In this document: in pieces, positions 26,789 to 32,319 of the stretch | How positions within the stretch are numbered: the stretch's first letter is position 1 | How the letters are laid out: each line of letters begins with the position of its first letter | Assembly: GCA_944391965.1 (NCBI GenBank) | Contig: CALXVH010000015.1 | Coordinates: 1-34,851 of the forward strand | Origin: an uncultured Clostridia bacterium | Lineage (GTDB): Bacteria > Bacillota > Clostridia > TANB77 > CAG-508 | Direction: 5' to 3' | Length of the DNA stretch: 34,851 bases | The notes under the pieces: generated by a model | The model's input: only the letters and a program-made list of their open reading frames with translations | What the model was told of the DNA's origin: nothing | Databases searched by the model: none | Made by a program: the position numbers and the translations under genes

Positions 26789-27034
26789 ATGGAACAAATT
26801 TTAGTTGCAACAATGAGTAGCATTGGTTGGATGCTAGGATTAACATTCTTAGGTTTAGGAATAGGAATTGGAATCTTAGGTTCAAAAGTAGCAGAAGCTG
26901 TAGGTAGAAACCCAGAAACAAAAAGTGATATTGTACATTCAGTAATGACAATATTAATAGTAGTTGCAATATTCTTATTACTACTATTCGCATTTATATT
27001 TTTATTATTATTTTACAATCCTTTAACAGTATAG
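26789..27034 (+). CDS. atpE: F-type c-subunit-like proteolipid without ion-binding carboxylate
   Basis: An 81-aa two-helix hairpin. Helix 1 has the glycine-rich c-ring signature GLGIGIGILGSKVAEAVG, and the polar loop R40-N41-P42-E43 matches the R-Q/N-P loop that contacts gamma and epsilon in real c subunits. Helix 2 (~48-76) is all Val/Ile/Leu/Phe/Ala. The residue aligned with the essential Asp61 of E. coli c is Ala60. No Asp, Glu or Gln lies in the middle of either helix, since E36 and D47 are near the loop. A ring could still form and bind the rotor but should not carry protons or sodium. A strong AAAGGAGGG ribosome site fits high copy number. It is first of the ATPase genes, as in normal operons after atpB. 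Confidence 0.85.
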   Translation: MEQILVATMSSIGWMLGLTFLGLGIGIGILGSKVAEAVGRNPETKSDIVHSVMTILIVVAIFLLLLFAFIFLLLFYNPLTV

Positions 27035-27046
27035 TAGGTGAAAATT

Positions 27047-27811
27047 ATGGAACTAATAATACCAGCGGTTGTAATAGTCTTAATAATGTTTATCTTCACA
27101 TTCTTTATGTTTAAAAACTTAGTGAAGCGAATTAATAATAGTACCAAAAAGTACTTTTTGGATAAACTACAAGACTTTGACTATATAATAGCTGAAAAAG
27201 AAAAAGAAATAGAAATATTATCAGAGCAAATTAAACGTTTAAACGAAGCTAAACAATCTGGAGAAAATGGGGAAATCGTAGAAATACCAGAAATTAAAAA
27301 GCCAGAAGAAAAAATAGTATATGATATCCCAACACCAGAATTTAGAGAGGCAGGGTTCTTTAAGAACTATAAAGGTTTAAATAAAGAATTTGATGTTAAT
27401 GAAGAAAAGATTCTAAAAGACTTTATAAAAGTACATGAAAAAGATGACACAACAGAATATAAAGAACTTGATGCATTTTCTAAGTTATTTACACAAAATG
27501 CAATATATGAATCTTTAACACTAACACCAGAAGAACAACTGGATTTGGTAGAAAGTGTTTTAACTAAAGAAAATAAAGCATTTGTAGAACCAATTATTAA
27601 AACAATAAAGAATTTTAATGTTTTAGAAATGTTGGACAAAATAAAAGAAAGAATGGACAAAATTTCTCCAACAATATATGTATATGTTAGTGGAGATAGT
27701 AACAAAAACTATGATTACTTAAGTTCTAAAATAAAAACAAAATTATTTAAGAACATGTCTAAAGGTATTATAATAGAATACAAAGACAAATTATATGACT
27801 ATAGTATATAA
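27047..27811 (+). CDS. F-type b-delta fusion-like peripheral stalk protein
   Basis: A 254-aa protein with one N-terminal membrane helix (~4-22), a charged coiled-coil segment (~35-70, EKEKEIEILSEQIKRLNEAK) as in b subunits, a linker, and a C-terminal helical domain. It ends with KGIIIEYKDKLYDYSI, which resembles the delta/OSCP ending GGI.I..GDKV.D.S. That makes it a b-delta fusion, known in Mycobacteria but here with a shorter delta end. Its place between c and alpha is exactly where atpF and atpH belong. The start ATG 27047 follows AGGTG; the GTG at 27038 is part of the ribosome site. It probably forms the stator linking the alpha/beta head to the membrane. The similarity is visible at the C-terminus and in layout, but overall it is weak. 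Confidence 0.7.
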   Translation: MELIIPAVVIVLIMFIFTFFMFKNLVKRINNSTKKYFLDKLQDFDYIIAEKEKEIEILSEQIKRLNEAKQSGENGEIVEIPEIKKPEEKIVYDIPTPEFREAGFFKNYKGLNKEFDVNEEKILKDFIKVHEKDDTTEYKELDAFSKLFTQNAIYESLTLTPEEQLDLVESVLTKENKAFVEPIIKTIKNFNVLEMLDKIKERMDKISPTIYVYVSGDSNKNYDYLSSKIKTKLFKNMSKGIIIEYKDKLYDYSI

Positions 27812-27828
27812 GGAAAAAGGGTGAAGAA

Positions 27829-30052: not shown

Positions 30053-31420
30053 ATGGCTAACGAAAAGGAAGTAATAGGAAGAATAATTGGTATTTCTGAA
30101 CTTAATGTTAAAGTATTATTATTTAACGAAAGCGTTAAACTTAATGACATATTAACATATGAAGATGAAGATGGTATCAGAAAATTTGAAGTTGTTCAAA
30201 TAGATAACAATGTAGCATCTACAGTACCTTTTGAAAGAGTTATAGGACTAAAAAAAGGAGGTGCTGTAACTTTAGAAAAAGGTGGGCTACAAATAGAATA
30301 CTCTGATGCAATATTAGGAAAAGTATTTAGCCCATATGGAGATGTAATTAATCATAAAGAATTAAAATCTGTAAAAACAAGAAATGTTTACGACAGAAAA
30401 CTTTCTTTTAAAGAATTAAATATAAATAATGCACCATTATGGACAGGAATTAAAGCATTAGACTTTTTCGCACCACTTCAAAAAGGATTTAAAATGGGAC
30501 TTTTAGGTGGAGCCGGAGTTGGAAAAACAGTTTTAATAAAAGAAATTATTAACAACGTTTATAAAAGATTAAAATCTAATGCTGTATTTATTGGTGTTGG
30601 TGAACGTTCTCGTGAGGGACAAGAATTAATCGAAGAAATGCAAGAATCAGACTTATTAGATAAAATGTCTATGGTATTTGGACAAATGGGTGAAAATCCA
30701 TGTTCAAGATCTAAGGCAGTATATAGTGGGTTAACACTTGCAGAATATCTAAGAGATGAAAAAGAACAAGATGTATTAGTATTTATAGATAACATATATC
30801 GTTTTATACAAGCAAAATCTGAAATATCAACAGAAATGAAGAGGGTTCCAATTGAAAATGGATATCCTACATCAATGGTATCAGATATAACAGACGTAGA
30901 AGAAAGAATAAACTCTATAGATAAGGGATCAATAACATCGTTCCAAGCTATATATATACCAGCAGATGATATAACAGATGAAGCAGTTCAAGCTATAACA
31001 ACACATATGGACGGACAAGTAGTTCTTGACCGTAAAGTTGCAGAAAAGGGTATTTACCCAGCAATAAACGTATTTAAAACAACAAGTAAAGCAGTGGATG
31101 CAGAAGTAGTAGGACAAAAACACTACGATTTAGTTCAAGAAACATTAAGATATTTATCAAGATACGAAGAACTAGAAGAAATAATTGCAGTTCTAGGTAT
31201 TGATGAATTATCAGAAGAGGATAGAATGATTTTCTATCGTTCTAGAAAGTTAAGAAATTACTTTACACAACCAATGTTTGTTTCTGAGAACTATACAGGA
31301 ATAAAAGGGGTTATGGTAGATATCGAAGATACATTAATAGATGTAGAAGATATCTTAAATGGAAAATATGATGATGTAGACGAAAGTAAATTATTATTTA
31401 GAGGTACATTACATGAATAA
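30053..31420 (+). CDS. atpD: F1-like ATPase beta (catalytic) subunit
   Basis: A 455-aa beta-type subunit with an intact catalytic site: P-loop GGAGVGKT (152-159), the general-base Glu184 in GVGERSREG, Walker B VLVFIDN (D246), and Tyr335 in GIYPA at the adenine pocket. The torque-transmitting DELSEED motif is perfect (384-390). Compared with housekeeping beta, the NEPPGAR loop is changed to GENPCSR (213-219) and the SALLGR.PSAVGYQPT loop to TEMKRVPIENGYPTS. Both lie at the alpha/beta interface. These features predict an active ATP hydrolase of divergent family. A GGAAGGTG ribosome site precedes the ATG. The stop overlaps the epsilon-like gene by 8 bp. Confidence 0.94.
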   Translation: MANEKEVIGRIIGISELNVKVLLFNESVKLNDILTYEDEDGIRKFEVVQIDNNVASTVPFERVIGLKKGGAVTLEKGGLQIEYSDAILGKVFSPYGDVINHKELKSVKTRNVYDRKLSFKELNINNAPLWTGIKALDFFAPLQKGFKMGLLGGAGVGKTVLIKEIINNVYKRLKSNAVFIGVGERSREGQELIEEMQESDLLDKMSMVFGQMGENPCSRSKAVYSGLTLAEYLRDEKEQDVLVFIDNIYRFIQAKSEISTEMKRVPIENGYPTSMVSDITDVEERINSIDKGSITSFQAIYIPADDITDEAVQAITTHMDGQVVLDRKVAEKGIYPAINVFKTTSKAVDAEVVGQKHYDLVQETLRYLSRYEELEEIIAVLGIDELSEEDRMIFYRSRKLRNYFTQPMFVSENYTGIKGVMVDIEDTLIDVEDILNGKYDDVDESKLLFRGTLHE

Positions 31421-31703
31421 TGAAAAAGAAAATATACAAGAAGCTACACCAAATGTAGCAAAAATGAATGTAAAAGTTTTAAACATACGAAATGGTTTAA
31501 AATCATATGATAATGTTTCCATGATAAAGATTAAGAGTAAAAAATACAACTTAAGTATCATGGAAGATTATCTACCAGTAATTGGAGAAGTAGATGGCGA
31601 TATTGAGATAATTGCTATTGATAATTTTGTTAAGTTGACAAATATAATAGGATATTATATGCTTAAACATAATGAATTTAAATTATTTATAAAAGAGGAA
31701 TAA
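31413..31703 (+). CDS. F1 epsilon-like protein lacking the C-terminal helices
   Basis: A 96-aa protein directly after beta and overlapping it by 8 bp, the position of atpC. After a ~17-residue charged extension, MNVKVLNIRNG and the SIMEDYLPVIGEVDGDIEI stretch resemble the epsilon beta-sandwich (consensus G.L.ILP.H.PLI..L..G...I). It stops after that domain. The two C-terminal helices that carry ATP binding and auto-inhibition in epsilon are absent. It would therefore link gamma to the c-like ring but not inhibit hydrolysis. The identification rests largely on gene order, since sequence identity is weak. Confidence 0.65.
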   Translation: MNNEKENIQEATPNVAKMNVKVLNIRNGLKSYDNVSMIKIKSKKYNLSIMEDYLPVIGEVDGDIEIIAIDNFVKLTNIIGYYMLKHNEFKLFIKEE

Positions 31704-31704
31704 A

Positions 31705-32319
31705 ATGTTAGATACAATACTTTACGAATTAAGCAAAGTTGCTTGGGTATTGCCAATATTTTTAGGAATAATATTATTATTAAGTTTTATAATGTATTTA
31801 GTTACTAAAAAATTTGACATACACAAAAAAAGTGTAATGGTAAGTGGAATGTTTATGGGACTTAGTAATAAGCAAATTATAATGATTATATCAATCTTTA
31901 TAAGAACATTTTTAGTAATATTTACCGCTTGCGTTTATAGTAAAAGTATATTATTATATTTACTAATGATAGCTATTTCCTCTATAATATTTGCAGTACT
32001 TAATTTAAAGAAAGCAATTTTAGAAATAGTAAGCACTAGCGCACAAATAGTTGCGTTATATTTAATAAATATACTAACAAGTTATATGATAGAAGAAAGT
32101 AATGATACATATGTACTTGTAATAAAAATATGTTTAATCGTATTTTTAATAGTATATGCAGTATATTTCTTCTTAAAGAATTTTGAAGATATTATTACAA
32201 ACCACAAAAGGAGAACGGTTGATGAAGGAAGAAAAAGAAAATCAAAAGAAAAAGGAAGAGAAAATAAACTTAAAGGAAGCAAAGGAAAAGAAAGTATCCA
32301 AGAAAGCAGTGAAAACTAA
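31705..32319 (+). CDS. Five-helix membrane protein of the F1-like cluster
   Basis: A 204-aa protein whose ATG is one base after the epsilon stop, using a GAGGAA ribosome site inside that gene. Five hydrophobic segments are visible (~15-34, 57-77, 82-101, 104-128, 135-157), followed by a Lys/Arg/Glu-rich cytoplasmic tail of ~45 residues. Arg67 lies within the second segment (IISIFIRTFLVIF). An intramembrane Arg is the key residue of the F-type a subunit, but I see no other a-subunit motif, and helix order and size differ. So it is best called a membrane protein of unknown role that could be the ring's partner. Its last 98 bases overlap the next gene in a different frame. Confidence 0.75.
   Translation: MLDTILYELSKVAWVLPIFLGIILLLSFIMYLVTKKFDIHKKSVMVSGMFMGLSNKQIIMIISIFIRTFLVIFTACVYSKSILLYLLMIAISSIIFAVLNLKKAILEIVSTSAQIVALYLINILTSYMIEESNDTYVLVIKICLIVFLIVYAVYFFLKNFEDIITNHKRRTVDEGRKRKSKEKGRENKLKGSKGKESIQESSEN

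What the first reader, a model, noticed from the sequence alone, without database searches (positions are those of the whole stretch)
26789..32319. F1-like ATPase cluster that seems uncoupled from ion transport
Seen: six consecutive genes keep the order c, b-delta, alpha, gamma, beta, epsilon of a normal ATP synthase operon, with intact catalytic motifs in beta. They lack a recognisable a subunit and the c carboxylate and have a shortened epsilon. They sit between giant extracellular proteins. Known: Mollicutes have divergent F1-like ATPases (types 2 and 3, F1-like/X0) tied to gliding or to the MIB-MIP antibody-cleaving system. Inference: this is a distinct version in a walled Gram-positive, an ATP-driven rotary or mechanical motor acting on surface proteins.
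Basis: partly seen in the sequence, partly recalled or inferred. Interest (0 to 1): 0.93.

Follow-up and report, generated by a model that had tools for sequence, protein, structure and literature searches.

The report
ATP-driven motor for giant surface proteins
Some gut Clostridia and scattered relatives carry a conserved gene cassette in which an ATP-synthase-like engine that lacks recognisable ion-moving parts is encoded together with giant surface proteins, so it likely burns ATP to turn or pull machinery on the outside of the cell, a use that the papers found here report only in mycoplasmas.

Summary
Window genes encode c, a fused b-delta, alpha, gamma, beta and an epsilon-like subunit. 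Catalytic motifs are intact. All 78 family c proteins examined lack the ion-binding carboxylate; canonical controls keep it. No a subunit was found in the (92% complete) genome, where this is also the only F- or V-type alpha/beta pair. Alpha and beta form their own 100/100 clades, apart from housekeeping F1 and Mollicute types 2 and 3. The unit is an 11-gene cassette: giant protein 1, p493, c, b-delta, alpha, gamma, beta, epsilon, a 5-TM protein, p427, giant protein 2. It recurs in Clostridia, Bacilli and one Bifidobacterium, often beside ordinary ATPases.

New here: in Lachnospiraceae-type relatives giant 1 and p493 carry glycine-triplet tracts of matching length (r = 0.98, 21 loci; 17 of 23 pairs within two triplets), which suggests one composite rod through the wall. 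The window's own copy has only short glycine-rich linkers. Best reading: a fourth kind of F1-like motor, turning a non-conducting c-ring to move surface proteins. Rotation, coupling and the thing moved are inferred. I found no description in the papers searched.

The parts
19789..25245 (+). giant protein 1 (g1), 1818 aa: N-terminal TM anchor, membrane-proximal domain, Gly-rich linker, large extracellular part
   Evidence: ORF; one TM at 5-23; profile hits in 75 of 81 loci, though the profile also reached other giants; an ORF of 1000 aa or more lies upstream in 40 of 43 full loci, counted by size only; no Pfam hit over cut-off, no PDB match
25290..26771 (+). p493: N-terminal TM anchor, membrane-proximal domain related to g1's, Gly-rich linker, FN3-like domain
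   Evidence: hhalign g1-p493 99.1%; FN3 by profile to Tenascin-R E 1.8e-7
26789..27034 (+). c subunit without the ion-binding carboxylate
   Evidence: PF00137 E 9.1e-8; position P+18 is T/A/S/V/M in 78 of 78, E in 5 of 5 canonical c
27038..27811 (+). b-delta fusion (stator): TM and long helix, helical domain, four-stranded C-terminal domain
   Evidence: AlphaFold pLDDT 90.1; Foldseek best 6fkf_d E 6.1e-4, the only match under 0.001; M. smegmatis b-delta entries also listed
27829..29178 (+). F1 alpha-like subunit, Walker A and arginine finger kept, about 55 aa shorter than canonical
29175..29969 (+). F1 gamma-like subunit
   Evidence: PF00231 E 1.1e-27; hhalign to canonical gamma 97.4%
30053..31420 (+). 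F1 beta-like subunit, catalytic motifs intact
31413..31703 (+). epsilon-like subunit, 96 aa (by position and a weak profile match)
   Evidence: hhalign to canonical epsilon 24.5%, E 8e-4; present in 43 of 43 full loci
31705..32319 (+). 5-TM protein with a long C-terminal helix; candidate stator anchor, not shown to be an a subunit
   Evidence: TM count; AlphaFold pLDDT 90.0; no significant Foldseek match; hhalign to canonical a 0.2%
32183..33466 (+). p427: Lys-rich tail, one TM, then a presumably extracellular domain (true start may lie further in)
   Evidence: homologue downstream in 40 of 43 full loci
33835..33856 (+). (AC)11 repeat ahead of giant protein 2; length differs between relatives
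   Evidence: 10, 11, 12 and 15 units in four genomes of the genus; the only tract of six or more AC/TG units in the window
34064..34849 (+). giant protein 2 (g2), cut off by the contig end; 2882 aa in the close relative G003, with hydrophobic segments at both ends

Best explanation
A conserved 11-gene cassette joins an F1-type ATPase with intact catalytic motifs, a c subunit that has lost its ion-binding carboxylate and a predicted b-delta stator to giant membrane-anchored surface proteins, and it likely works as an ATP-driven rotary motor that moves those surface proteins instead of pumping ions. ATP hydrolysis in alpha3-beta3 would turn gamma, epsilon and the c-ring (inferred). b-delta, and probably the 5-TM protein in place of subunit a, would hold alpha3-beta3 still (inferred). 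The turning ring would be coupled, through the single-TM anchors and their membrane-proximal domains, to giant protein 1 and p493, and possibly to p427 and giant protein 2 (inferred). In Lachnospiraceae-type members giant 1 and p493 bear glycine-triplet tracts of matching length (shown), which would form rods that run side by side through the wall and carry motion to the outer heads (inferred). What the heads act on is unknown; surface attachment or movement over mucus and particles is my first guess.
For: Catalytic motifs: beta Walker A 73 of 73, catalytic GER motif 73 of 73, alpha arginine finger 80 of 80, alpha Walker A 77 of 80 (proteins of at least 430 aa). c carboxylate gone in 78 of 78, kept in 5 of 5 canonical controls. 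No a subunit in the genome or in 81 loci. b-delta fold. Separate clade for alpha 100/100 and beta 100/100. Cassette conserved in 43 full loci and kept together when reordered (L107/L157). It coexists with an ordinary F or V pair in 11 of 20 carriers (my sorting), so it is not simply their ATP synthase. Tract lengths of g1 and p493 match: r 0.980 in 21 loci with both tracts, 0 of 100,000 permutations as close, one pair (29/29) found after the rule was set; over all 56 loci with both proteins r is 0.970.
Against: No experiment. Coupling of the ring to any surface protein is not shown. The window's own copy has no such tracts (4 triplets in each; Gly-rich stretches of 59 and 39 aa). Six of 23 pairs differ by more than two triplets: L060 20/12, L110 22/16, L063 16/20, L086 31/35, L058 16/20, L082 17/20. 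In L059 (5/9) and L077 (2/11, g1 runs off the locus edge) only p493 passes the limit. On a tree the correlation falls to r 0.61 (p 0.004, 19 contrasts). L052 and L053 have no recognisable c gene in the held stretch. Relatedness of the membrane-proximal domains is convincing for g1-p493 only; a control pair (5-TM protein vs p427) scored 69%. epsilon is a weak assignment. In 9 of 20 carriers the cassette holds the only F- or V-type pair, which leaves room for a bioenergetic role there.
Confidence: 0.62

Rival explanations
1. It is an unorthodox ion pump: the 5-TM protein replaces subunit a, and the polar residue at the c site (Thr/Ser in 42 of 78) or another site binds the ion.
For: The 5-TM protein is in the cassette in 43 of 43 full loci; Thr or Ser at the site in 42 of 78; the cassette holds the only rotary pair in 9 of 20 carriers.
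Against: No acid at the site in 78 of 78; Ala, Val or Met in 36 of 78; no similarity of the 5-TM protein to canonical a by profile (0.2%) and no significant fold match; giant surface proteins are unexplained.
Confidence: 0.1
2. The ATPase does not turn a shaft but powers export or assembly of the giant surface proteins, as FliI-type ATPases help secretion.
For: ATPase and giants are co-encoded; alpha and beta also match FliI/SctN models at a distance.
Against: gamma, c and a b-delta stator are kept, which secretion ATPases do without (recalled); most of the surface proteins have an ordinary N-terminal TM anchor.
Confidence: 0.1
3. It is a walled-cell counterpart of the mycoplasma MIB-MIP system: the motor resets a surface trap that handles host antibodies or similar proteins.
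For: The Mollicute type 3 F1-like ATPase is needed for MIB-MIP (PMC12994834); the beta tree joins type 3 and this family 98/88, with a long-branch warning; g2 of G003 matches 3n6z, named putative IgA1 protease, at E 1.1e-4 over residues 1630-1768; many record titles name animal gut sources.
Against: No MIB or MIP model hit in g1, p493, p427 or g2 (whether NCBIfam holds such models was not checked); no protease domain by Pfam in the members scanned; the 3n6z name is an annotation, and a sub-threshold GLUG motif lies in that stretch.
Confidence: 0.13
4. A decaying remnant of an ATP synthase operon.
For: Lost carboxylate and no a subunit; short alpha and epsilon.
Against: Catalytic motifs kept in all 73 beta proteins examined; same losses and gene set across many lineages; two copies in G097 and G107.
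Confidence: 0.03

Closest known systems
Mollicute Type 3 F1-like X0 ATPase (MSC_0618/MSC_0619, MMCAP2_0575-0581)
   Same: F1-like alpha, beta, gamma and epsilon co-encoded with membrane proteins, beside a normal ATP synthase; acts with surface proteins (PMC12994834)
   Different: Separate clades and far below the MSC model cut-offs; this one has a c subunit and a b-delta stator, while that paper lists no c among the seven genes and reports no b homologue; different surface proteins; no MIB/MIP hit
Mycoplasma mobile Type 2 G1-ATPase (MMOB1610-1670), PDB 9io5
   Same: F1-like motor proposed to drive surface movement (PMC12994834 discussion)
   Different: Below MMOB1660/1670 cut-offs; beta lacks the long N-terminal extension suggested to join two F1 heads (455 aa; 9io5 aligns from its residue 298)
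Housekeeping F1Fo ATP synthase
   Same: Order c, b, delta, alpha, gamma, beta, epsilon; catalytic motifs
   Different: No a subunit found, no c carboxylate, b and delta fused, alpha/beta outside the housekeeping clade
N-ATPase (alternate F1F0, TIGR03324/TIGR03305)
   Same: An extra F-type ATPase beside the housekeeping one, patchy spread
   Different: 361.6 of 750.5 and 400.1 of 752 bits needed; gene order differs from the N-ATPase order given in PMC4154653 (passage)
Vertebrate V-ATPase with Ac45/PRR helices inside the c-ring (recalled, no call)
   Same: Single-pass proteins with large outer domains tied to a c-ring
   Different: V-type, ion-pumping, eukaryotic; used here only as a precedent for the coupling idea

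Membership tests
Housekeeping F1Fo ATP synthase | subunit a (PF00119) | tested here: not met
   no match in the genome at E 10 (genome 92.33% complete, so a missing contig is possible); none in the ORFs of 81 loci
Housekeeping F1Fo ATP synthase | ion-binding carboxylate in c | tested here: not met
   0 of 78 family c; 5 of 5 canonical controls have it
Housekeeping F1Fo ATP synthase | alpha and beta inside the housekeeping clade and over atpA/atpD cut-offs | tested here: not met
   406.1 of 484.45 and 440 of 462.85 bits; separate 100/100 clades
Housekeeping F1Fo ATP synthase | catalytic motifs | tested here: met
Housekeeping F1Fo ATP synthase | b and delta stator | tested here: met
   as a fusion, by predicted fold; profile match to canonical delta only 75.4%, to canonical b 3.1%
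Mollicute Type 3 F1-like X0 | alpha/beta over MSC_0619/MSC_0618 cut-offs | tested here: not met
   307.1 of 520 and 396.3 of 570 bits
Mollicute Type 3 F1-like X0 | MIB-MIP partners | tested here: inconclusive
   no such NCBIfam hit in four surface proteins; presence of MIB/MIP models in that library not checked
Mollicute Type 3 F1-like X0 | 12-TM protein and the small cytoplasmic protein | not tested
   the cassette's TM protein has about 5 TM; no homology search against MMCAP2_0581 or 0580 was made
Mollicute Type 2 G1-ATPase | alpha/beta over MMOB1660/MMOB1670 cut-offs | tested here: not met
   392.4 of 600 and 367.3 of 850 bits; reference alpha L126 scores 824.2
Mollicute Type 2 G1-ATPase | extra N-terminal domain on beta | tested here: not met
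   window beta 455 aa; match to 9io5 starts at its residue 298
N-ATPase | alt_F1F0 model cut-offs | tested here: not met
   N-ATPase sequences were not in the trees
FliI / type III secretion ATPase | FliI/SctN cut-offs | tested here: not met
   best 222.2 of 587.45 bits
Any F1-like motor | ATP-driven rotation | not testable with these tools
   needs single-molecule or structural work

The most novel reading that the evidence does not exclude
A rotary drive shaft through the bacterial cell wall: a carboxylate-free c-ring, spun by an F1 ATPase, turns a composite glycine-triplet rod made of giant protein 1 and p493 and so rotates or winds giant heads outside the wall, a second way, beside the flagellum, for a bacterium to carry rotation across its envelope.
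Probability: 0.28. Interest if true: 0.97.

Novelty: new variant of a known kind. Interest (0 to 1): 0.88.

Why it matters
[quoted passage not shown] This cassette puts the kind into Clostridia, Bacilli and a Bifidobacterium, has a c subunit and a stator that are not among the seven genes of the mycoplasma clusters, and is tied to a distinct set of giant surface proteins. It occurs in named strains (Kineothrix alysoides KNHs209, Bifidobacterium colobi LC6), so the question of how an F1 motor can drive something other than ion transport becomes testable outside mycoplasmas. The matched glycine tracts offer a concrete, measurable idea of how force could cross a thick wall.

Tried and rejected

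Shared membrane-proximal domain in the four surface proteins: g1-p493 99.1%, g1-g2 94.0%, p427-g2 86.4%, g1-p427 80.9%, p493-g2 68.3% (63 columns in the FN3-like part only), p493-p427 1.7%; b-delta and epsilon controls 0.1-0.3%, but the control pair 5-TM protein-p427 gave 69.3%. I claim only g1-p493 firmly. A first run used an odd global option and was replaced.

Prevalence: the b-delta profile gave 14 of 391 class genomes at E 0.001, but only 3 (window's genome included) score over 200 bits; the others score 19-30 bits. The c-loop pattern gave 4 of 391, one of them an unrelated protein, so 3; 3 of 296 on the Bacilli side, all true; 7 of 299 around Kineothrix, of which three (G840, G1027, G1075) are unrelated proteins, so 4; 1 of 99 around B. 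colobi, which is B. colobi itself. Centres are counted. The 317 stretches may include ordinary alphas, so only the 80 kept loci are used.

Alpha and beta became mixed in my iterative profiles; they were separated by BLAST before the trees. The profiles of g1, p493, p427 and g2 grew over iterations and share hits. Sister-group order is unresolved: alpha leaves it open, beta joins type 3 at 98/88 with a long-branch warning, and there the six housekeeping betas hold together at only 88/68. No solved relative was found for g1 or the p427 profile.

Out-of-sample tract test: of 10 stretches fetched, one gave a new pair (L182, 29/29), two were copies of known loci (L177, L179), three had no tracts (L183, L185, L186), and four held no g1-p493 pair (L178, L180, L181, L184).

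Paper searches showed no paper on such a cassette outside Mollicutes, judged from the listings; one search was too broad (2,557 papers, 15 shown). Most subscription papers and all preprints are not held. Seen of the papers: PMC12994834 abstract, sections 6 and 12 (part 1) and passages; passages of PMC3369863 and PMC4154653; all others in listings only. The E. coli c numbering, wall thickness, rise per residue, chain-letter meanings in PDB entries and the V-ATPase Ac45 precedent are recalled.

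
Full report
What is in the window. Gaps between neighbours from c to the 5-TM gene run from -8 to 83 bases, as in an operon. Upstream lie p493 and a 1818-aa giant (g1); downstream lie p427 and the start of a second giant (g2) cut off by the contig end at 34851. In the close relative G003 (alpha 99.3% identical) g2 is 2882 aa with a hydrophobic segment at each end. Pfam recognises c, alpha, gamma and beta only.

Genome. The window's genome (1.5 Mb, 92.33% complete) has no other F- or V-type alpha/beta pair and no subunit a. 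Many relatives show a third, weaker match of about 100 bits, probably Rho, that is missing here, so the assembly may lack genes. The genome shares a genus with G004, whose 7986-base contig matches in length the record of Candidatus Merdicola faecigallinarum; that genus is in Clostridia. Of the 14 genomes of the genus examined, 4 carry the cassette (G000, G003, G004, G008; my sorting).

A conserved cassette. A scan of named genomes kept 80 loci with 56-99% alpha identity, in uncultured Clostridia and Bacilli, Lachnospiraceae, Kineothrix alysoides and Bifidobacterium colobi. The order g1, p493, c, b-delta, alpha, gamma, beta, epsilon, 5-TM, p427, g2 recurs. In 43 loci with at least 8 kb on both sides of alpha (the window is not among them), b-delta, gamma, beta, epsilon and the 5-TM protein occur in 43, c in 41, p427 in 40; an ORF of 1000 aa or more lies upstream in 40 and downstream in 34, counted by size, not homology. 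In six of them the 5-TM protein appears fused to p427. The p493 count of 43 includes two matches that lie in g1-like proteins (L052, L053). Where the order changed the parts still travel together: in L107/L157 p427, g2 and g1 all lie upstream. Of 20 genomes behind such loci, 11 also have an ordinary F or V pair (10 an F pair), and in 9 the cassette holds the only pair; this is my sorting by frame length and alpha-beta spacing, and completeness is not given for these genomes.

Spread. It is rare: 3 of 391 genomes of the class, 3 of 296 on the Bacilli side and 4 of 299 around Kineothrix, centres included, and none of 98 relatives of B. colobi. The patchiness suggests transfer between lineages, which I did not test by species trees.

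Uncoupled from ions. At the residue that carries the c carboxylate (18 after the loop proline; E. coli Asp61 by recalled numbering), family c proteins have T 34, A 29, S 8, V 5, M 2 of 78; one, L061, has an Asp one position earlier. The same rule finds Glu in 5 of 5 canonical c proteins, and by eye in the sixth, whose loop the rule missed. A profile of canonical a subunits finds nothing in the ORFs of 81 loci.

Where it sits. NCBIfam cut-offs for atpA, atpD, N-ATPase, MMOB and MSC families are all missed. In trees with housekeeping F1 (22 alphas, 6 betas), Mollicute type 3 (14 rows) and one type 2 sequence, the family is one clade at 100/100 for alpha (25 of the family's rows used) and for beta (25).

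Glycine tracts. In many Lachnospiraceae-type loci g1 has a Gly-X-Y tract and p493 a Gly-Gly-X tract shortly after the membrane-proximal domain. Shuffled sequences reach runs of at most 7 triplets. In the 20 loci of 56 in which both tracts reach 9 triplets the counts agree with r 0.980; over all 56 r is 0.970. Examples: 68/69, 40/41, 39/40, 33/33, 31/32, 27/28, 23/24. After that rule was seen, a second cluster in G097 was fetched and gave 29/29 (L182). With it, r is 0.980 for 21 loci and 0 of 100,000 permutations are as close; without three near-copies r is 0.978 for 18. Two split g1 genes add 16/20 and 22/16, so 17 of 23 pairs lie within two triplets. The sharpest case is L089, 68/69, whose nearest relative in the set, at 82% alpha identity, has 39/40: both tracts differ by 29. 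Tree-corrected r is 0.61, p 0.004, with L060 (20/12) against its near relative L063 (16/20) as the main misfit. Either the two tracts lie side by side in one complex, or both must bridge the same distance. At about 0.29-0.31 nm per residue (recalled) 16-69 triplets give 14-64 nm, in the range of Gram-positive walls (recalled). The window's own g1 and p493 have no such tracts, only Gly-rich stretches of 59 and 39 aa; among 36 loci without both tracts these stretch lengths still correlate (Spearman 0.59, many zeros).

Mechanism. Shown: active-site motifs, gamma, c without carboxylate, no a subunit found, conserved linkage to giants, matched tracts in relatives. Predicted: b-delta fold. Inferred: rotation, stator role of the 5-TM protein, coupling of the ring to surface proteins, function of the heads. 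Compared with Mollicutes this would be a fourth kind of F1-like motor, one that still has a ring and a stator.

A switch? An (AC)n tract lies about 200 bases before g2, with 11 units in the window and 10, 12 and 15 in three relatives; one other locus, L048, has 13 units. In the relative with 15 units, L149, a 107-aa leader frame runs through the repeat to the start of g2. Such tracts often vary the expression of surface proteins (recalled); here this is only suggested.

Noticed in passing
33835-33856: (AC)11 repeat ahead of giant protein 2; 10, 12 and 15 units in relatives L032/L150, L034 and L033/L149: candidate phase-variation tract.
   Followed up: partly
6220-15160: Two large surface proteins with thioester (TED) and DUF11 domains, one also with SpaA, adhesin-like, between rpoC and the cassette; ORFs of the same lengths in G003.
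   Followed up: no
L054, L056 and other Bacilli loci, alpha genes: alpha reading frames of about 550-1090 aa in many Bacilli members; in L054 and L056 the extra length is C-terminal, judged from the later gamma start.
   Followed up: no
L052, L053: No recognisable c gene or upstream giant; g1-like proteins with 16-triplet tracts lie downstream instead.
   Followed up: partly
L090, L097, L108, L111: Reordered cassettes with gamma after the 5-TM gene; in L108 and L111 p427 lies upstream.
   Followed up: no
G097 and G107 (loci L082/L182 and L058/L063): Two copies of the cassette in one genome beside ordinary F and V ATPases.
   Followed up: partly
L150:2832-11480 (giant protein 2 of G003): Residues 1630-1768 match 3n6z, annotated putative IgA1 protease, at E 1.1e-4; a sub-threshold GLUG motif lies there.
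   Followed up: partly
17693-18898: AAA_14/DUF4143 ATPase gene upstream of the cassette; an ORF of the same length at the same place in G003.
   Followed up: no
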